From positions 1 through 63,481 of the forward strand of contig CAIQQJ010000019.1 in the NCBI GenBank assembly GCA_903873905.1: a stretch of DNA of 63,481 nt, read 5' to 3'. The DNA is from an uncultured Flavobacteriales bacterium (lineage in GTDB: Bacteria; Bacteroidota; Bacteroidia; Palsa-965). Positions within the stretch are counted from its first letter, which is position 1; each line of letters begins with the position of its first letter. Positions 3,648 through 32,386 of this stretch are shown piece after piece. A program made the position numbers and the translations under genes. The notes below the pieces were generated by a model, which made no database searches, had not been told where the DNA came from, and worked only from the letters and a program-made list of their open reading frames with translations.

Positions 3648-3679
3648 TTGCATTTATCAATTTTTTATCGCAACATTTG
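3648..3679 (+). promoter_or_regulatory. Candidate promoter for the arginine leader and operon
   Basis: TTG at 3648-3650, a 21-bp spacer and AACATTTG at 3672-3679 match the Bacteroidota form TTG-N17-23-TAnnTTTG with one mismatch in the -7 element. Transcription would begin near 3684, giving a leader of about 314 nt before the first long gene at 3998. Confidence 0.4.
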
Positions 3680-3724
3680 CACCGTTAATTCACAACACGT
3701 CTAATTTTAATTCATCAGGTGAAA

Positions 3725-3853
3725 ATGAAACACCTCTTTTACATGGCGCTAGGAAAATTCCAGCTGATGGTTCTCGGTAACCGTCTTAGCTATGTTTTGT
3801 CGACGAATGTTGTTACCTCTTTCCCAAAGAGGACTTTTAGGATAAGGATTTAA
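3725..3853 (+). CDS. Possible 42-residue arginine leader peptide
   Basis: ATG at 3725 opens 42 codons ending in TAA at 3851 and a TAG one base later in another frame. An AGGTGA stretch precedes the ATG by a few bases. The peptide ends KRTFRIRI: three of the last seven codons are arginine, all AGG (3830, 3839, 3845). It lies between a candidate promoter and the arginine operon, overlapping hairpins that could alternate. This is what a ribosome-mediated arginine attenuator would look like. No homology is recognised and translation is unproven. It could be a chance frame inside a structured RNA leader. Confidence 0.4.
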   Translation: MKHLFYMALGKFQLMVLGNRLSYVLSTNVVTSFPKRTFRIRI

Positions 3854-3861
3854 TAGTCCTT
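3762..3861 (+). promoter_or_regulatory. Structured leader with overlapping stems before arg operon
   Basis: Three candidate structures are visible. AGCT...GGTT / AACC...AGCT folds at 3762-3791. CCTCTTT at 3816-3822 pairs perfectly with AAAGAGG at 3826-3832 across a three-base loop. AGGACT at 3830-3835 can instead pair with AGTCCT at 3855-3860; it shares AGG (3830-3832) with the previous stem, so the two exclude each other. A third option is AAGGA 3844-3848 with TCCTT 3857-3861. There is no clear U-tract after them, so any attenuation would need Rho or act on translation. The rest of the 3551-3997 gap shows no gene beyond the small frame at 3725. Confidence 0.4.
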
Positions 3862-3997
3862 CGCTACTGCAGCCTTGTGCTGTCCAATTACCTTCTTAAT
3901 TTCTAAACTATCATTCCGTTCGATCGGGAAGATTTTTGTTTAACCCTTTTCATTTCACCTATGCGGTGATAATGAAAAATAAAAATGTGATTTTCCA

Positions 3998-4675
3998 ATG
4001 GAAAACAACACAATTGTGATCGTACAAATTGCAAATTCGTCGCACACTCATTACTCAGAAAAAATCTGCGAGGAAATGCAAAGTTCTGCACAAGCACGTG
4101 GAACTGGAATTGCGAAACGTTCGCCGGATTATGTCGCGCAGAAAATGTTGGAAGAAAAAGCGGTGATTGCACTTTCCTCCAATGGAGAATGGGCTGGCTT
4201 TTGCTACATCGAAACTTGGGGACACGGAAAATATGTTGCGAATTCCGGCTTGATTGTCGCACCACAATTTCGAAAAGGTGGTTTGGCAAAACGAATCAAA
4301 CAAGAAGTTTTCAATCTTTCGCGGAAGAAATATCCTGAAGCGAAAATTTTTGGACTGACCACTGGACTTGCAGTAATGAAGATCAATTCGGAATTAGGTT
4401 ACGAACCTGTTACGTATTCGGAATTGACAGATGACGATGCGTTCTGGAATGGATGTAAGAGCTGTATCAATTATGAAATTCTATTGAGCAAAGAGCGTAA
4501 AAATTGTTTGTGCACCGCCATGCTTATCGATCCCTTGGCTGCCAAAATAGATTCAAAAACTTCACCGGAAGAAAACTTCAGGCGAAAATCAAAATTGTAT
4601 GAACGTTTTTTGCGATTGAAAAAACATGTTCTACTTCGCTCCAAAAAAATCAAATCAAGTATTCCTCTTTTTTAA
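3998..4675 (+). CDS. GNAT N-acyltransferase, candidate first enzyme of arginine pathway
   Basis: A 225-residue GNAT-fold protein. The acyl-CoA binding signature RKGGLA lies at residues 92-97, preceded by the strand ANSGLIVAPQF, and the fold continues to KINSELGYEPV. A basic tail of about 70 residues follows the GNAT core. It is the first gene of the arginine operon, with its stop 10 bp before the ATG of argG. Bacteroidota generally lack recognisable ArgA or ArgJ, and a GNAT often sits here, so the likely job is acylation of glutamate. Given the succinyl signature in ArgF', succinyl-CoA is a reasonable substrate guess, but nothing in this protein shows that directly. Confidence 0.75.
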   Translation: MENNTIVIVQIANSSHTHYSEKICEEMQSSAQARGTGIAKRSPDYVAQKMLEEKAVIALSSNGEWAGFCYIETWGHGKYVANSGLIVAPQFRKGGLAKRIKQEVFNLSRKKYPEAKIFGLTTGLAVMKINSELGYEPVTYSELTDDDAFWNGCKSCINYEILLSKERKNCLCTAMLIDPLAAKIDSKTSPEENFRRKSKLYERFLRLKKHVLLRSKKIKSSIPLF

Positions 4676-4685
4676 ATCAAAGAAA

Positions 4686-5945
4686 ATGTCAAGCAAAACC
4701 AATCAACACTTCAGCCTATCAGCACATCAACAAATCATCCTAGCATTCAGTGGTGGACTCGATACGAGTTTCTGCGCCATTCATCTTGCGAAAGAGAAAG
4801 GATATGAAATTCATGCTGTAACCATCGATACAGGCGGATTCAGTAAAGAAGAATTGCAAGAAATTGAAAATCGCGCAAAATCACTTGGCGTAAAATCTTT
4901 CCTTGTGATTGACGGAGCAAAAAGATTTTATGAATCCTGTATACGCTTTATGGTTTTCGGAAATGTTTTGAAGAATGGAACATATCCACTTTCTGTAAGT
5001 GCAGAACGAGTTACACAAGCCATTCTTCTTGCCGAACATGCTAAATCTGTTGGTATCACTAAAATCGCGCACGGAAGTACAGGGGCAGGAAATGACCAAG
5101 TTCGTTTTGACATGTTGCTTGAAATTCTTTTTCCAGAAGTGGAAATCATTACGCCTATTCGTGATTTAAAACTTTCACGAGAGGAAGAGATAAATTATCT
5201 GAAGGAAAATGGTGTGCAAATGAATTTTGAAAAAGCAAAATATTCCATCAACAAAGGAATTTGGGGAACATCAGTAGGAGGAAAAGAAACACTCACTTCC
5301 AATTTACCCTTACCTGAGGAAGCTTTTCCAACACAAGTGACAAAATATGAGAATGAAACTTTGATGATTGGTTTTGAAAAAGGTGAATTGAAAACTGTGA
5401 ACGGAAAATCATTTTCCAATCCTGTTGATGCAATAAAACTTGTTCAGAAAATTGCTGGTCCGTTTGGAATTGGACGTGACATTCATGTAGGCGATACAAT
5501 TATCGGAATAAAAGGTCGCGTTGGCTTTGAAGCGGCGGCGCCGATTTTGATTATCAAGGCGCATCACGCATTGGAGAAACATGTTTTGAGTAAATGGCAA
5601 TTGTTCTGGAAAGATCAACTTTCATCTTGGTATGGAAATCAATTGCACGAAGGACAATACTTCGAACCTTTCATGCGTGATCTCGAAGCCTTGTTGGAAA
5701 ATTCACAGCAGTTTGTAACAGGAGATGTTTTTATTTCACTTCAGCCTTATCGTTTTTCCATTAACGGAATTGAGTCAGAATTTGATTTGATGAAATCGCA
5801 AGAAGGCGCATATGGTGAAATGAATAATGGTTGGACCGGCGAGGATGTAAAAGGATTTTCCAAGATTTTCGGAAACCAAGTGAAGAATTGGTACAAACTT
5901 CATCATCCGACAAAAATTAAAATTGAGGAGGAAATTGAATCATGA
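4686..5945 (+). CDS. argG: Argininosuccinate synthase
   Basis: Joins citrulline and aspartate with ATP. The pyrophosphatase loop SGGLDT lies at residues 22-27 of the 419-residue product. The later block AHGSTGAGNDQVRFD and the segment INKGIWGTSVGG are typical of ArgG. The ATG at 4686 (MSSKTNQHF) is chosen because the open frame upstream overlaps the GNAT stop and adds a 20-residue extension with no ArgG character. The last codons overlap argC by 4 bp (ATGA), pointing to coupled translation. Confidence 0.93.
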   Translation: MSSKTNQHFSLSAHQQIILAFSGGLDTSFCAIHLAKEKGYEIHAVTIDTGGFSKEELQEIENRAKSLGVKSFLVIDGAKRFYESCIRFMVFGNVLKNGTYPLSVSAERVTQAILLAEHAKSVGITKIAHGSTGAGNDQVRFDMLLEILFPEVEIITPIRDLKLSREEEINYLKENGVQMNFEKAKYSINKGIWGTSVGGKETLTSNLPLPEEAFPTQVTKYENETLMIGFEKGELKTVNGKSFSNPVDAIKLVQKIAGPFGIGRDIHVGDTIIGIKGRVGFEAAAPILIIKAHHALEKHVLSKWQLFWKDQLSSWYGNQLHEGQYFEPFMRDLEALLENSQQFVTGDVFISLQPYRFSINGIESEFDLMKSQEGAYGEMNNGWTGEDVKGFSKIFGNQVKNWYKLHHPTKIKIEEEIES

Positions 5946-6916
5946 AAAAAATGATCAAAGTCGGAATTGTTGGCGGCGCAGGATACACTGGCGGAGAATT
6001 GATTCGTTTGCTCCTACTCCATCCTAATGTGGAGATTTCATTTGTTCACAGCAGAAGTAATGCAGGGAAATTAATTTCTTCGGTTCACCATGATCTTCTG
6101 GGCGACACTTTTCTTTCGTTCACAGATCAGATCAATAAAACTGTTGATCTTGTATTTCTTTGTCTGGCCCACGGCGAATCTGCAAAATGGCTGAAAGAAA
6201 ATTCATTGCCAGAAAATATTTCCATCATCGATCTCAGTCAGGATTTTCGTTTGTCTTTCGAAGGAAATGATTTTATTTATGGCCTTCCTGAATTTCAAAA
6301 AGAAATTATCGTGAAAGCAAAACACATTGCCAACCCAGGATGTTTCGCCACTGCCATTCAACTCGCATTGCTTCCTCTGGCTGAAAAAGGTTTGTTGCAT
6401 GATGACATACAAGTTTCCGCTATCACAGGTTCAACTGGTGCTGGACAATCACTGAGTGCAACGTCGCATTACACTTGGCGGTTTGGAAATCATTCAGCTT
6501 ACAAATCATTGGAGCATCAGCATCTCGCTGAAATTGGTGAAACATTTTTGAAAATGAATCCTTCTAATTCAGGAGCGATTCACTTCATTCCACAACGTGG
6601 TTCTTTCACGCGCGGAATTTTTGCAACAATACATTTTCCTACAAATCTAAATTCACAAGAAGCAAATTCGATTTACAGTGCATTTTATTCGAATCAACCT
6701 TTCACGCACGTAAGTGAAAAAGCAATTGATCTGAAACAAGTGATCAACACGAATAAATGTTTATTGCATGTTGAAGTGATCAATGGAAGAATCGTAATTA
6801 CTTCCGCCATTGATAATCTTTTGAAAGGAGCATCCGGACAAGCCGTTCAGAATATGAATTTGATTTTCGGATTTGAAGAAACCTCTGGACTAAAACTTAA
6901 ATCACTCGCTTACTAA
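5942..6916 (+). CDS. argC: N-acetyl(succinyl)-gamma-glutamyl-phosphate reductase
   Basis: NADPH-dependent reduction of the acyl-glutamyl phosphate to the semialdehyde. The Rossmann start GIVGGAGYTGGELIRLL covers residues 8-24, and the catalytic cysteine is Cys134 in NPGCFATAI. The C-terminal region has IHFIPQRGSFTRGI, normal for the family. At 324 residues it is of usual length for the short ArgC class. It overlaps argG by 4 bp and ends one base before argD. Confidence 0.93.
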   Translation: MKKMIKVGIVGGAGYTGGELIRLLLLHPNVEISFVHSRSNAGKLISSVHHDLLGDTFLSFTDQINKTVDLVFLCLAHGESAKWLKENSLPENISIIDLSQDFRLSFEGNDFIYGLPEFQKEIIVKAKHIANPGCFATAIQLALLPLAEKGLLHDDIQVSAITGSTGAGQSLSATSHYTWRFGNHSAYKSLEHQHLAEIGETFLKMNPSNSGAIHFIPQRGSFTRGIFATIHFPTNLNSQEANSIYSAFYSNQPFTHVSEKAIDLKQVINTNKCLLHVEVINGRIVITSAIDNLLKGASGQAVQNMNLIFGFEETSGLKLKSLAY

Positions 6917-6917
6917 A

Positions 6918-8063
6918 ATGAAAACATTCAACGTATATCCCTTATTACCTGTGACTCCAGTTTCCGCAAAAGGGGCAATTGTCACAGATGAAAACGGAAT
7001 TGACTATCTCGACTTCTATGGCGGTCATGCTGTAATTTCCGTTGGACACTCACATCCACATTATGTGAATAGTCTTAAAACACAACTTGATAAAATCGCA
7101 TTTTATTCCAATGCGGTTCAAAATCCCTTGCAGGAAATCCTTGCGGAAAAACTCGGTAAGATTTCAGGTTATGAAAAACATTTCCTGTTTCTCTGCAATT
7201 CCGGAGCGGAGGCAAATGAAAACGCATTAAAACTTTCCTCTTTTCATAATGAGCGAAAGAAAATAATTGCATTCGAAGGATCCTTTCATGGTAGAACTTC
7301 TGCGGCTGTTGCTGCCACAAATGATTTGACGATTAATGCAAAAATAAATTTGCAGCATGAAGTGGAATTTATTCCCTTGAACGATTTTGGAATTGCAGAA
7401 AAGAAAATTGACGAAACGGTTTCTGCAGTTATCATTGAAGGAATTCAAGGTGTAGCGGGAGTTGTTGAACCAACAATTGAATTTCTCCAATTCATTTCAA
7501 AAAAATGCAAGGAAACTGGAACAGTTCTTATTCTAGATGAAGTACAATCAGGTTGTGGACGAACTGGTGATTTTTTTGCACATACAAAAAGTGGAATCGA
7601 AGCGGATCTTATTACCATGGCAAAAGGTTTGGGAAATGGATATCCCATTGGCGCAGTTTTAATAGCTCCTCAATTCCAAGCGAAACATGGATTGCTTGGA
7701 ACAACTTTCGGTGGAAATTATCTCGCATGCACAGCGGCGATTTCAGTTCTTGAAATTATTGAAATGGAATCATTACAAAAAAATGCCGAATTGATTGGAC
7801 ATTATCTACATTCTGAAATTTTCCAAATCCCTGGAGTGACAAAAGTTTCAGGAAGAGGTTTGATGATTGGAGTTACGCTAGAAGATAATTGTGCAGGTGT
7901 GAGAACTCAATTGCTCAATGAACATCACATTTTCACAGGATCATCTTCCTGTAAAAAAACTTTGCGCTTGTTGCCGCCCTTGAATATTACCATGCAACAA
8001 GCGGAATTATTTGTGAAAGCATTTTCTTCCGTGATGAAAAAACAATTAACCCCAGCCAACTAA
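6918..8063 (+). CDS. argD: Acyl-ornithine aminotransferase
   Basis: A class-III PLP-dependent aminotransferase of 381 residues that makes the acyl-ornithine from the semialdehyde and glutamate. The cofactor lysine is Lys236 in TMAKGLGNGYPIGAV, the PLP-contacting aspartate is Asp207 in LILDEVQSG, and NSGAEANE lies at 94-101. The ATG follows the argC stop by one base. Whether it prefers acetyl or succinyl substrates cannot be read from the sequence with confidence. Confidence 0.92.
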   Translation: MKTFNVYPLLPVTPVSAKGAIVTDENGIDYLDFYGGHAVISVGHSHPHYVNSLKTQLDKIAFYSNAVQNPLQEILAEKLGKISGYEKHFLFLCNSGAEANENALKLSSFHNERKKIIAFEGSFHGRTSAAVAATNDLTINAKINLQHEVEFIPLNDFGIAEKKIDETVSAVIIEGIQGVAGVVEPTIEFLQFISKKCKETGTVLILDEVQSGCGRTGDFFAHTKSGIEADLITMAKGLGNGYPIGAVLIAPQFQAKHGLLGTTFGGNYLACTAAISVLEIIEMESLQKNAELIGHYLHSEIFQIPGVTKVSGRGLMIGVTLEDNCAGVRTQLLNEHHIFTGSSSCKKTLRLLPPLNITMQQAELFVKAFSSVMKKQLTPAN

Positions 8064-8064
8064 A

Positions 8065-9063
8065 ATGAAATACTTCACAACTGCATACGACACTCCTGAT
8101 GTACTGCAATTAATTCAAGATGCAATTTCCCTGAAAGAAAATCCTAATAAATTTTCTGAAATTGGAAAAAATCTGACACTTGGATTGGTTTTCATGAATC
8201 CAAGTTTGCGGACACGATTGAGCACACAAAAAGCATCGCAATTGTTAGGAATGAATTCTCTTTTAGTGAATACTTCGACGGATGGTTGGACGCTTGAATT
8301 CGGCGATTCGCCAATGAACGGAACAACTGTTGAACACATCAAGGAGGCTGCAGGTGTAATGGGTGAATATTGCGATATTATCGGTGTTAGAAGTTTTCCT
8401 GGTTTAACGGATCGTGAAAAAGATGAACGAGAAGAAATTCTTTTGCAATGGATGAAACATTCCGGCAAACCAATTCTCAGTCTTGAATCAGCAACACGTC
8501 ATCCACTTCAAAGTCTTTCTGACATGATGACGATTATTGAAAATTCAAAAAAGAAAAAACCAAAAGTTGTGCTCACTTGGGCACCACACGTGAAAGCGGT
8601 TCCGCATGCAGTCGCAAATTCTTTTTCCGAATGGATGAAATTTATGGATGCAGAATTTGTCATTGCTTGTCCCGATGAAGTTCGATTGAATGAAGAATAT
8701 ACTACACATGCTACCATCACAAACAAGCAGGATGAAGCATTGGAAGGAGCGGATTTTGTATATGTGAAAAGCTGGGCCGAATGGAATAATTACGGGAAAT
8801 ATTTTTCCTCGAATGAAAATTGGCTGCTCAATCAGAAAAAACTCTCATTGACAAATGATGCAAAAATCATGCACTGTCTTCCTGTTCGTCGTGATGTGGA
8901 AATTCAGTCAGAAATTCTTGAAAGCAAAAATTCTTTGGTCATGCAACAAGCAGGCAATCGTGTTTACGCTGCACAAACTGTTTTGAAAAAAATGATTGAA
9001 AGCAATTACCCAAATCATTCGGAAAAAATCACGTCAAAGCAATTTCAAAATATAAAATCATGA
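8065..9063 (+). CDS. argF: N-succinyl(acetyl)-L-ornithine transcarbamylase
   Basis: Transfers carbamoyl to an N-acylated ornithine; 332 residues. The carbamoyl-phosphate motif FMNPSLRTR is at 43-51, HPLQ at 146-149 and HCLPVRR at 270-276. The block MNGTTVEHI (84-92) aligns with the specificity loop of this family: X. campestris acetylornithine enzyme has Glu92 there, B. fragilis succinylornithine enzyme has Pro90, and this protein has Val89. Published swaps, as I recall them, turn the acetyl enzyme into a succinyl enzyme when Glu92 becomes Val, Ala, Ser or Pro. I therefore favour succinylornithine. It overlaps argB by 4 bp. Confidence 0.92.
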   Translation: MKYFTTAYDTPDVLQLIQDAISLKENPNKFSEIGKNLTLGLVFMNPSLRTRLSTQKASQLLGMNSLLVNTSTDGWTLEFGDSPMNGTTVEHIKEAAGVMGEYCDIIGVRSFPGLTDREKDEREEILLQWMKHSGKPILSLESATRHPLQSLSDMMTIIENSKKKKPKVVLTWAPHVKAVPHAVANSFSEWMKFMDAEFVIACPDEVRLNEEYTTHATITNKQDEALEGADFVYVKSWAEWNNYGKYFSSNENWLLNQKKLSLTNDAKIMHCLPVRRDVEIQSEILESKNSLVMQQAGNRVYAAQTVLKKMIESNYPNHSEKITSKQFQNIKS

Positions 9064-9845
9064 TTACAGTTATCAAACTCGGCGGAAATATCATTGATGA
9101 TCAAATTCAATTGGAGAATTTCCTTCTGCAAGTTTCTGTTCTTCCAGGAAAAATCATTCTTGTTCATGGCGGGGGAAAACTGGCGTCAGCACTTGCTGAA
9201 AAAATGGAAATGGTTCCTGAAATGATAAATGGCCGTCGTGTTACCAATGAAGAAACGCTGAAAATCATTACGATGGTTTATGCAGGATGGATTAATAAAT
9301 CAATTGTTGCTAAACTTCAAGCGATGAATTGTAATGCACTTGGTCTTTCTGGAGTGGATGCAAATATCATTCAATCCGAAAAACGTGCGAACCATCCAAT
9401 TGATTATGGATTTGTTGGTGATCCAATTGAGAACAAAATCAATTCAGATTTTCTATTGACACTTTTGAAAAGCGGAATGCTCCCAGTAATCGCACCTGTA
9501 ACGCATGATGGGAAAGGGCAATTACTTAATACAAATGCAGATACCATTGCTGCTGTCATTGCTTCTGCATTGGGAAAAACTGAAAAAGTTCAATTGCTTT
9601 ATTGTTTTGAAAAAAATGGCGTTTTGGAAAATGTGGCCGACGAAAAAAGTGTTTTAAAAAATCTGAAGGCTGATTTGTTCGATGAATTGACTTCTTCAGG
9701 GAAAATTCATTCGGGAATGTTGCCAAAATTAAAAGCTGGATTTCAGGCAAAGAAAAACGGTGTCTCCCGAGTTGTAATTGGAAATGCTTCACACTTGGAA
9801 AACTTATCAAAAGAAAATTCATTTTGCACCAACCTCGAATTATAA
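9060..9845 (+). CDS. argB: N-acyl-L-glutamate kinase
   Basis: Phosphorylates N-acylglutamate. Amino-acid kinase fold with KLGGN at 6-10 and VHGGGK at 35-40. Nearer the C-terminus NTNADTIAAVIASALGK and SGKIHSGMLPKLKAG match the ATP-binding end of ArgB. The length of 261 residues is usual. Its ATG overlaps the argF' stop by 4 bp and argE begins at the next base after its stop. In a succinyl pathway this enzyme would act on N-succinylglutamate. Confidence 0.93.
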   Translation: MITVIKLGGNIIDDQIQLENFLLQVSVLPGKIILVHGGGKLASALAEKMEMVPEMINGRRVTNEETLKIITMVYAGWINKSIVAKLQAMNCNALGLSGVDANIIQSEKRANHPIDYGFVGDPIENKINSDFLLTLLKSGMLPVIAPVTHDGKGQLLNTNADTIAAVIASALGKTEKVQLLYCFEKNGVLENVADEKSVLKNLKADLFDELTSSGKIHSGMLPKLKAGFQAKKNGVSRVVIGNASHLENLSKENSFCTNLEL

Positions 9846-10943
9846 ATGAAACAACTCAGTCATAAAGCAATTGTCCTTTTGCAAAGCCTCATCGCTACGC
9901 CATCTTTCAGCAAGGAAGAGTTTGCTACAGCTGATATAATTGCCGCTTTTCTTGAAAATGAAAAAATAAAAACGCATCGCAAGAAAAATAACATTTGGGC
10001 TTTCAACAAAACTTTCAATTCCTCCTTGCCAACTTTATTACTCAATTCACATCATGACACTGTAAAGCCAGGTAACGATTGGACAAAAAAACCATTTGAC
10101 CCAATCATTTCTGAAGAAAAATTATTTGGACTTGGTAGTAATGATGCAGGCGGAGCATTGGTTTCTTTGCTTGCAACATTTTTACATTTCAATGAAAAAG
10201 AAATTCCTTTCAATCTTATTTTCGCCGCAAGTGCAGAAGAGGAAATTTCAGGAAAAGCTGGAATTGAATCTATTCTTTCGGAACTCGGAAAAATAGACGC
10301 TGCAATAATTGGTGAACCAACACAAATGAATTTGGCAATCGCAGAAAAGGGATTACTTGTTTTGGATTGCATTTCCATTGGCAAAACTGGTCACGCTGCT
10401 CGGGAAGAAGGAGAAAACGCCATTTATAAAGCGATGAAGGATATTGTTTGGTTTCAGACTTTCAAATTTTCTAAAATTTCAAAATGGTTGGGTGAAATAA
10501 AAATGTCGGTAACAGTAATTGAAGGGGGAAAACAGCACAATGTTATTCCGGAAAAATGTTCTTTCACCGTTGACATTCGTGTGACAGATGAATATGCTTT
10601 GGAAGAAATCCTTGAAATTGTAAAACAAAATGTTGACTGTGAAGTCACTCCTAGAAGTGTTCGTTTGAAATCATCTTTCATTTCAGAAAACCACCCGCTT
10701 GTAATTTCAGGAAAAAACATTGGAAGAAATTTATATGGTTCACCAACGCTTTCAGATCAGGCTTTGATTCCATTTCCATCAATCAAAATCGGGCCGGGCA
10801 ATTCTGCACGTTCACACACCGCTGATGAATTCATTTTCATAGAAGAAATCGAAGAAGGAATAAAACTTTACATCGAACTCCTTGAAAACTATCAAAAAGA
10901 AATTTTGACCTCAACCCAAAAATTGGAAATTGGAAATCACTAA
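9846..10943 (+). CDS. argE: M20 deacylase, acyl-citrulline/ornithine type
   Basis: A 365-residue zinc amidohydrolase of the M20 family. The metal ligands appear as SHHD (His69, Asp71), the bridging Asp100 in GSNDAGG, and the acidic pair in SAEEEISG near 129-136. A dimerisation domain occupies roughly residues 170-280. In an operon with an acyl-ornithine transcarbamylase, the natural substrate should be the acylated citrulline rather than acylornithine. It is directly joined to argB with no gap and precedes argH by 13 bp. Confidence 0.88.
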   Translation: MKQLSHKAIVLLQSLIATPSFSKEEFATADIIAAFLENEKIKTHRKKNNIWAFNKTFNSSLPTLLLNSHHDTVKPGNDWTKKPFDPIISEEKLFGLGSNDAGGALVSLLATFLHFNEKEIPFNLIFAASAEEEISGKAGIESILSELGKIDAAIIGEPTQMNLAIAEKGLLVLDCISIGKTGHAAREEGENAIYKAMKDIVWFQTFKFSKISKWLGEIKMSVTVIEGGKQHNVIPEKCSFTVDIRVTDEYALEEILEIVKQNVDCEVTPRSVRLKSSFISENHPLVISGKNIGRNLYGSPTLSDQALIPFPSIKIGPGNSARSHTADEFIFIEEIEEGIKLYIELLENYQKEILTSTQKLEIGNH

Positions 10944-10956
10944 ATTGAAAATACAA

Positions 10957-12288
10957 ATGAAACTCTGGCAAAAAGAAACAAGCACGGATAAAAAAGTTGA
11001 ATCGTTTACTGTGGGAAAAGATCGTGAATTTGATATTCTCCTTGCGGAATTCGATGTAGTTGGTTCGATCGCACATACTGAAATGTTGTGTCAATGTGAA
11101 CTTATTTCATTGAACGAAAAAAATGAAATTCACGCCGGTTTAAAAAACATACTGGCTGAAATCCATAATGGCGACTTTACCATTGAGGAAAATTGTGAAG
11201 ATGTTCATTCACAAATAGAATTCCTATTGACAAAAATGATTGGGGAAGCGGGAAAGAAAATTCACACCGCGCGTTCTCGCAATGATCAATCCTTGCTGGA
11301 CATAAAATTATTTTGCCGTAACGAAATAAAAAAAACAGTTTCCTCAACTGAAAAACTTTTTAATTCGCTCATTGAACTTTCCGATAAATACAAAAGCGAT
11401 TTATTGCCAGGTTATACTCATTTACAACTTGCGATGCCTTCTTCATTTGGATTATGGTTTGGTGCATATGCAGAAAGTTTGTGTGATGATCTGGAATTAG
11501 TACAGGCAGCCTATTCTGTTGCAGATAAAAACCCCTTAGGATCGGCTGCAGGTTACGGATCCTCTTTCCCGATCAATCGTGAATTGACAACTGAACTTTT
11601 AGGATTCAGTGGAATGAATGTCAATTCCGTTTACGCGCAAATGACTCGAGGAAAAACAGAAAAAATAGTTTCAGTTGCTTTGGCGAGTATTGCCTCAACT
11701 CTTTCAAAACTGTCCATGGATTGCACCTTATTCATGAATCAGAATTTTGGATTCATTTCTTTCCCAGACAATCTCACAACAGGAAGCAGCATCATGCCGC
11801 ACAAAAAAAATCCGGACGTTTGGGAAATTATTCGTGGAAAATGTAATCGCATCCAATCCTTGCCCAATGAATTTTCTTTATTGCTCGCAAACCTACCCTC
11901 TGGTTATCACCGTGACTTGCAATTGACCAAAGAAATTTTATTTCCAGCTTTTAGTGAACTGAACTCTTGTTTGGAGATGGCAGAATTTATGTTGAAGCAT
12001 ATTATTGTATCTGAAAAAATTCTTGACAACAAAAAATACGATTTTCTTTTTACTGTTGATTCGGTCAATAATGAAGTGAAAAAAGGAATTCCTTTTCGTG
12101 ATGCTTACCGTAATGTGGGTCAGGCGGTCGAAAATAACACTTTCCAAAAACCAATAGAATTAACCCATAATCACACAGGAAGCCTTGGAAATTCGGGAAA
12201 TTCATTAATTCTTGATCGATTTCGAAACAAAATCAATCAATTCAATTTCGAAAAAGCGGAAAATGCAATACGTCAATTGTGTATCTAA
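10957..12288 (+). CDS. argH: Argininosuccinate lyase
   Basis: Splits argininosuccinate into arginine and fumarate; the last gene of the operon. It has HTARSRNDQ, the TRGKTEKI segment and the fumarase-superfamily signature GSSIMPHKKNPD around residues 278-289. The ATG at 10957 (MKLWQKETS) is preferred because the longer frame starts inside argE and adds nine residues without family resemblance. The product is 443 residues. No terminator-like hairpin is evident in the 86 bp before the next gene. Confidence 0.92.
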   Translation: MKLWQKETSTDKKVESFTVGKDREFDILLAEFDVVGSIAHTEMLCQCELISLNEKNEIHAGLKNILAEIHNGDFTIEENCEDVHSQIEFLLTKMIGEAGKKIHTARSRNDQSLLDIKLFCRNEIKKTVSSTEKLFNSLIELSDKYKSDLLPGYTHLQLAMPSSFGLWFGAYAESLCDDLELVQAAYSVADKNPLGSAAGYGSSFPINRELTTELLGFSGMNVNSVYAQMTRGKTEKIVSVALASIASTLSKLSMDCTLFMNQNFGFISFPDNLTTGSSIMPHKKNPDVWEIIRGKCNRIQSLPNEFSLLLANLPSGYHRDLQLTKEILFPAFSELNSCLEMAEFMLKHIIVSEKILDNKKYDFLFTVDSVNNEVKKGIPFRDAYRNVGQAVENNTFQKPIELTHNHTGSLGNSGNSLILDRFRNKINQFNFEKAENAIRQLCI

Positions 12289-32283: not shown

Positions 32284-32314
32284 AAAAAAAAATGAAACTG
32301 AAATGATCTGAAAT

Positions 32315-32386
32315 AGCCCCGATTGTAGTGGAAAGCCTCCCAACTGTTTTGTTGGGAGACTTGAAACGGAAAGCGGGAACAGAGCC
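32315..32386 (+). repeat. Dispersed repeat, AGCCCCGATTG family
   Basis: The element runs from AGCCCCGATTGTAGTGGAAA to AAGCGGGAACAGAGCC. At its centre CTCCCAAC (32337-32344) pairs perfectly with GTTGGGAG (32351-32358). I recognise this pattern as a common intergenic element of Bacteroidota genomes of unknown role. A shorter relative lies at 63308-63349 on the other strand. Confidence 0.7.

What the first reader, a model, noticed from the sequence alone, without database searches (positions are those of the whole stretch)
3684..3997. Possible arginine attenuator with a leader peptide ending in AGG codons
A 42-codon frame with a ribosome-site-like AGGTGA ends KRTFRIRI, with three AGG arginine codons in the last seven. 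It overlaps two mutually exclusive stems (3816-3832 and 3830-3860), and a candidate promoter stands 46 bp upstream. It precedes a complete arginine operon. This fits ribosome-mediated attenuation, which I do not know to be described for arginine in Bacteroidota. The lack of a U-tract means the mechanism, if real, is not the textbook one.
Basis: partly seen in the sequence, partly recalled or inferred. Interest (0 to 1): 0.68.

Follow-up and report, generated by a model that had tools for sequence, protein, structure and literature searches.

The report
Arginine-sensing leader peptide across Bacteroidota
Just before an eight-gene set for making arginine, this bacterium encodes a tiny 42-residue peptide whose last codons are arginine, and the same kind of peptide sits in front of the same genes across much of its phylum, mostly where the usual arginine repressor is missing, so it very probably works as an arginine sensor read by the ribosome.

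Summary
The leader ORF is real and is the main result. It lies at 3725-3853 and ends ..KRTFRIRI*, with three AGG codons, a codon that is rare in this window. All five same-family relatives with the operon have a 42-45 codon ORF in the same place ending in Arg, written with different codons. Across Bacteroidia, 108 of 168 loci have such an ORF with at least 3 Arg in its last 9 codons (shuffles: 5.4-5.8). No other amino acid and not the reverse strand shows this. Arg codons crowd the last nine positions, above all the penultimate one, and favour rare CGA. ArgR is absent from this genome and from 377 of 396 class genomes; where argR precedes the operon the leader is nearly always missing (1/14 vs 68/120). 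An arginine leader-peptide attenuator is strongly supported.

There is a U-tract (3934-3941), but after a weak hairpin. The same family carries textbook his attenuators with strong terminators (7/7); arg leaders almost never do (7/128). The conserved RNA feature is a hairpin about 15-45 nt after the stop. Mechanism is inferred: stop-proximal stalling that controls termination (perhaps by Rho) or folding downstream. No description for arginine biosynthesis was found in the papers searched.

The parts
3648..3681 (+). candidate promoter: TTG (3648-3650) and -7-like ACATTTG (3674-3680)
   Evidence: sequence; -7-like elements enriched upstream of 128 leaders and seen at the same place in most relatives
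3717..3735 (+). small hairpin AGGTG-AAAATGAAA-CACCT with the leader start codon in its loop
   Evidence: sequence; same in L005 and L007, not in L003, L004, L006
3725..3853 (+). leader peptide ORF, 42 aa, MKHLFYMALGKFQLMVLGNRLSYVLSTNVVTSFPKRTFRIRI
   Evidence: conserved small frame with Arg tail in relatives
3830..3847 (+). sensor codons: AGG 3830-3832, AGG 3839-3841, AGG 3845-3847 (penultimate)
   Evidence: Arg at the penultimate codon in 74% of 128 leaders and enriched in codons 1-9 from the stop; AGG is 3 of 124 Arg codons in 11 neighbouring ORFs
   Evidence: present, but no better than shuffles
   Evidence: present, but no better than shuffles
3869..3883 (+). downstream-of-stop hairpin (CAGC-CTTGT-GCTG)
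   Evidence: folding excess at this distance from the stop in 128 leaders; in 17 leaders the hairpin here has a UACGY loop, 0.74 expected
3910..3941 (+). weak terminator-like hairpin ATCATTCCGTTCGATCGGGAAGAT followed by TTTTGTTT
   Evidence: -6.5 kcal/mol
3947..3979 (+). strong hairpin just upstream of the first gene, function unknown
   Evidence: window folding z about -6.5; other hairpins at a similar place in L004, L005, L007 by eye
3998..4675 (+). first gene of the operon, GNAT-family acetyltransferase
4686..12288 (+). argG, argC, argD, argF', argB, argE/dapE-type, argH

Best explanation
Shown by sequence comparison: a translated leader ORF whose last nine codons are selected to encode arginine precedes the arg operon in this family, in many other Bacteroidia families and in at least one further class of the phylum. 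Inferred: it is the arginine sensor of the operon. When charged tRNA-Arg is plentiful the ribosome runs through the Arg codons, ends at the stop and leaves; RNA after the stop is then exposed and transcription ends before the first gene, more likely with the help of Rho or another factor than at a classic terminator. [quoted passage not shown] Sensing of arginine by codons: likely. The off-switch: open.
For: Conserved ORF and Arg tail in all 5 family relatives. 108/168 loci with at least 3 Arg in the last 9 codons vs 5.4-5.8 in shuffles, 6 on the reverse strand, no other amino acid. Arg codons swap between AGR and CGN while Arg stays. In Pedobacter-type leaders the tail shows third-position excess (184/243/595 changes at codon positions 1/2/3; 367 synonymous vs 147 not), so it is translated. 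Arg frequency is 0.74 at the penultimate codon, 0.57 at the eighth from the end, about 0.02-0.14 beyond the tenth; CGA 33% vs 9% in the first gene. ArgR absent here and in 377/396 class genomes; leader at 1/14 ArgR+ vs 68/120 ArgR- loci, p 3.9e-4. Hairpin after the stop. Rho present. C over G excess between stop and first gene (0.168 vs 0.038). The same family has His-codon leaders on hisG.
Against: No expression data. No shared terminator or antiterminator. The C over G excess is not confined to the stretch after the stop, so the Rho step is weakly supported. Relatedness was only partly corrected for, and the ORF was chosen by its Arg count, which inflates position figures though not the comparison with shuffles. 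About a third of loci lack a clear leader by this criterion. ArgR+ genomes are concentrated in a few families.
Confidence: 0.72

Rival explanations
1. Textbook transcription attenuation: stalling favours an antiterminator over an intrinsic terminator before the first gene.
For: Weak hairpin plus TTTTGTTT at 3910-3941; a good terminator in relative L004 (-14.2 kcal/mol, TTTTT); terminator-like sites somewhat enriched (23/128 vs 6.3 in shuffles, 12/130 in control intergenic regions).
Against: Only 7/128 arg leaders have a canonical terminator of -8 kcal/mol or better, while 7/7 his leaders of the same family do. With Arg at the penultimate codon, stalled and terminating ribosomes differ by only a few nucleotides, which leaves little room for a position-based switch.
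Confidence: 0.2
2. Translational control: the stalled ribosome opens a structure that hides the start of the first gene, as in inducible erm genes.
For: Strong hairpin at 3947-3979 just before the first gene; in Pedobacter-type leaders a hairpin covers the start codon.
Against: Start regions are no less accessible than those of control genes (0.479 vs 0.501 unpaired, p 0.16).
Confidence: 0.15
3. Arrest peptide: the nascent chain with free arginine stalls the ribosome, as in the fungal arginine attenuator peptide or SpeFL/TnaC.
For: Peptide of about 40-45 residues, clade-specific conserved motifs, stall site at the end of the ORF.
Against: Peptide sequence differs almost completely between clades apart from Arg; very short leaders (15-25 codons) occur; rare Arg codons are favoured, which fits tRNA charging.
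Confidence: 0.08
4. Ligand-binding RNA (arginine riboswitch); the ORF is incidental.
For: Strongly conserved RNA after the stop in one clade.
Against: Arg tail enrichment on one strand only and for Arg only; synonymous changes in the tail; no Rfam match; no shared RNA core.
Confidence: 0.03

Closest known systems
Amino-acid leader-peptide attenuators of biosynthetic operons (trp, his, ilv, leu, thr, phe)
   Same: Small ORF with codons for the operon's end product before the operon; the same family has such a his leader
   Different: Product is arginine; sensor codons at the very end of the ORF; no canonical terminator in most leaders
Salmonella speF leader orf34 / SpeFL (PMC6386406)
   Same: Leader ORF with rare Arg codons, response to arginine shortage, hairpin just downstream of the stop, Rho-dependent termination
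   Different: Controls ornithine decarboxylase; Arg codons 12-13 matter and the one next to the stop did not; conserved peptide domain; unrelated sequence
Staphylococcus aureus rbfL (PMC13009471)
   Same: Leader ORF with rare Arg codons that senses arginine limitation
   Different: Stalling represses translation of the next gene, a biofilm regulator
Leader-peptide clues in Flavobacterium psychrophilum (PMC9723704)
   Same: Same phylum; leader-peptide attenuation proposed for amino-acid operons
   Different: Main text does not name arginine; supplements could not be read
ArgR repressor; arginine T-box of Firmicutes
   Same: Control of arginine genes by arginine or tRNA-Arg charging
   Different: ArgR is a DNA-binding protein, absent here; no T-box match in Rfam

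Membership tests
leader-peptide (ribosome-mediated) attenuator | small translated ORF upstream of the operon | tested here: met
   conserved frame, third-position excess in the tail
leader-peptide (ribosome-mediated) attenuator | codons for the operon's end product enriched in the ORF | tested here: met
   Arg only, 108/168 vs 5.4-5.8
leader-peptide (ribosome-mediated) attenuator, classic intrinsic-terminator type | intrinsic terminator before the first gene | tested here: not met
   7/128 canonical vs 7/7 for his leaders; window only -6.5 kcal/mol
leader-peptide (ribosome-mediated) attenuator, classic intrinsic-terminator type | mutually exclusive antiterminator/terminator stems | tested here: inconclusive
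leader-peptide (ribosome-mediated) attenuator | expression rises when the amino acid is short | not testable with these tools
   needs reporter or RNA data
arginine riboswitch or other known RNA family | match to a described RNA family | tested here: not met
   Rfam, window and 11 relatives
ArgR regulon | ArgR protein in the genome | tested here: not met
   PF01316 absent from G000 and family
SpeFL / arrest peptides | conserved peptide sequence needed for arrest | tested here: not met
   only Arg is shared between clades

The most novel reading that the evidence does not exclude
A phylum-wide arginine attenuator that takes the place of ArgR and works without an intrinsic terminator: a ribosome stalled on stop-adjacent Arg codons shields the RNA after the stop from a termination factor, with a downstream-of-stop hairpin (often with a UACGY loop) at a fixed distance as part of the device.
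Probability: 0.35. Interest if true: 0.75.

Novelty: new variant of a known kind. Interest (0 to 1): 0.62.

Why it matters
It names a likely answer to how a large bacterial phylum, which mostly lacks ArgR, controls arginine synthesis, and it offers many natural variants of one sensor. It also puts two attenuators side by side in the same genomes, a textbook one for histidine and a different-looking one for arginine, which makes the question of non-classical attenuation directly testable.

Tried and rejected
Rfam search of window and relatives: no leader match. Start-codon sequestration as the general rule: not supported. Intrinsic terminator as the general rule: not supported. Pairing of the UACGY loop with RNA near the stop: seen by eye in one clade, not general. 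RNAalifold on clade alignments gave little except in one highly similar clade. Leader search before homoserine dehydrogenase genes: nothing found. First look at L003-L007 was on the wrong strand, corrected; a first his terminator scan used the wrong stretch, corrected. The likely closest older survey (Lopatovskaya, Seliverstov and Lyubetsky 2010) is not held, so novelty for arginine is not certain.

Full report
What is there. The window lies on contig C19 of a 3.93 Mb genome estimated as complete. A leader ORF at 3725-3853 encodes MKHLFYMALGKFQLMVLGNRLSYVLSTNVVTSFPKRTFRIRI and ends 144 nt before a GNAT acetyltransferase gene that heads argG, argC, argD, argF', argB, an argE/dapE-type gene and argH. 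A promoter-like element stands about 45 nt upstream of its ATG (sequence).

Is the ORF more than chance? Six of twelve genomes of the family hold the first gene. All five relatives have an ORF of 42-45 codons at the same place, ending PRRFYRSRI*, SRRRPMFRSRI*, IRRCYFHRI*, LRRCLFTPRP* or PIRRFHIRP*. The penultimate codon is Arg in all six members and is written AGG, AGG, CGC, CGT, CGT and AGA. A class-wide search found the first gene in 140 of 396 genomes, and further loci came from named genomes and from cut-out regions. In 168 loci, 108 have an ORF of 15-75 codons ending 60-230 nt upstream with at least 3 Arg in its last nine codons; dinucleotide shuffles give 5.8. Repeated for all amino acids, only Arg stands out (108 vs 5.4; reverse strand 6; with at least 4 Arg, 32 vs 0.7). 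At least one such locus was found in 19 of 28 labelled families. Leaders with Arg tails also occur in another class of the phylum, for example MQKSLAHRIERPTTRRIPRRR* (L241) and MQFTLAHNIVRIPTPRFPRRR* (L250).

Nature of the signal. In 128 non-duplicate leaders Arg is found at the penultimate codon in 74%, at the eighth codon from the end in 57%, and is near background beyond the tenth. ORFs were picked by Arg count in the last nine codons, so the level is inflated, but not the preference for positions two and eight. Tail codons favour CGA (33% vs 9% in the first gene) and mildly AGG; in the window AGG makes up 3 of 124 Arg codons in eleven ORFs but 3 of 4 in the leader. In Pedobacter-type leaders the tail shows the substitution pattern of a translated, conserved peptide (184, 243 and 595 changes at codon positions 1, 2 and 3; 367 synonymous vs 147 other single changes), while the rest of the peptide is much looser. 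So selection acts on encoding Arg, not on one nucleotide sequence.

ArgR. The repressor family is found in 19 of 396 class genomes and not in this family. In the ArgR genomes examined argR lies directly in front of the first gene, where the leader would be. A leader with at least 3 tail Arg is seen at 1 of 14 ArgR+ and 68 of 120 ArgR- loci (p = 3.9e-4; with at least 2 Arg: 2/14 vs 88/120, p = 2.6e-5). The ArgR genomes cluster in a few families, so this is a strong pattern and not a count of independent events.

RNA structure. Averaged over 128 leaders, folding excess over shuffles peaks inside the ORF (110 to 70 nt before its end) and just after the stop (from -2 to +38 and from +16 to +56). 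In 17 leaders from at least nine families a hairpin after the stop has the loop UACGY (0.74 expected), with the loop starting 23-28 nt after the stop in 14 of them and with differing stem sequences; in the window the hairpin at 3869-3883 has the loop CUUGU.

Terminators. The window has a weak hairpin with TTTTGTTT, so the U-tract is not wholly absent. Canonical terminators occur in 7 of 128 arg leaders. As an internal control, the hisG genes of the same family are preceded by His-rich leaders (MKTTSHTHHHVCTPIR in the window's own genome) and a strong terminator in 7 of 7 cases, -13.4 to -20.6 kcal/mol. The arg leader therefore does not share the his design. Start codons of the first gene are not unusually hidden. 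The stretch between stop and first gene is richer in C than G (0.168 vs 0.038 in control regions) and Rho is present, which permits but does not prove Rho-dependent termination; the same excess is also seen upstream of the ORF.

Mechanism. Shown: a conserved, translated leader with Arg codons next to its stop, tied to the arg operon and largely exclusive with ArgR. Inferred: stalling at these codons when tRNA-Arg is uncharged turns the operon on. Open: whether the off state is Rho-dependent termination, weak intrinsic termination, RNA decay or blocked translation. The closest worked-out parallel is Salmonella speF, where Arg codons in a leader ORF, a hairpin just downstream of its stop and Rho act together, though there the stop-adjacent Arg codon was not needed.

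Known or new. Leader-peptide attenuation is a classic kind. Clues for it in amino-acid operons of a flavobacterium were reported without naming arginine in the main text. A survey of Actinobacteria found no RNA element for arginine genes and mentions T-boxes for arginine elsewhere. Ten literature searches found no arginine biosynthesis leader peptide in Bacteroidota; a 2010 survey and supplements could not be read. I file it as a new variant: it meets the ORF and codon features, fails the terminator feature, and differs in amino acid and codon placement.

Noticed in passing
G000:C82 (locus L261) and L260, L262-L266: The family's hisG genes have textbook His-rich leader peptides with strong terminators just upstream.
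   Followed up: partly
window 3947-3979: A very stable hairpin 19 nt upstream of the first arg gene, without a U-tract; hairpins of unrelated sequence stand at a similar place in L004, L005 and L007.
   Followed up: no
L014, L015, L036, L086, L120, L123, L143, L145, L149, L003, L005 and others, 23-28 nt after the leader stop: Hairpins with a UACGY pentaloop at a fixed distance from the stop codon; role unknown.
   Followed up: partly
L041, L042, L051, L054, L062, L058, L040 (Sediminibacterium and relatives), around the leader stop: About 50 nt around the leader stop are almost invariant, with CUGAUAGG (holding the stop) complementary to CCUAUCAG, possibly a pseudoknot with GUUGC/GCAAC.
   Followed up: partly
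L023, L025, L101 and Chitinophagaceae leaders such as L046, L049: A long U-run inside the leader ORF (encoding Val-Phe-Phe) looks complementary to the A-rich start region of the ORF; may limit leader translation.
   Followed up: no
window 3998-4675: First gene of the operon is a GNAT acetyltransferase without an NCBIfam match; a candidate for the missing first step (N-acetylglutamate or N-succinylglutamate synthesis).
   Followed up: no
window 32311-32384 (+): Flavo-1 RNA (RF01705), an RNA motif of unknown function.
   Followed up: no
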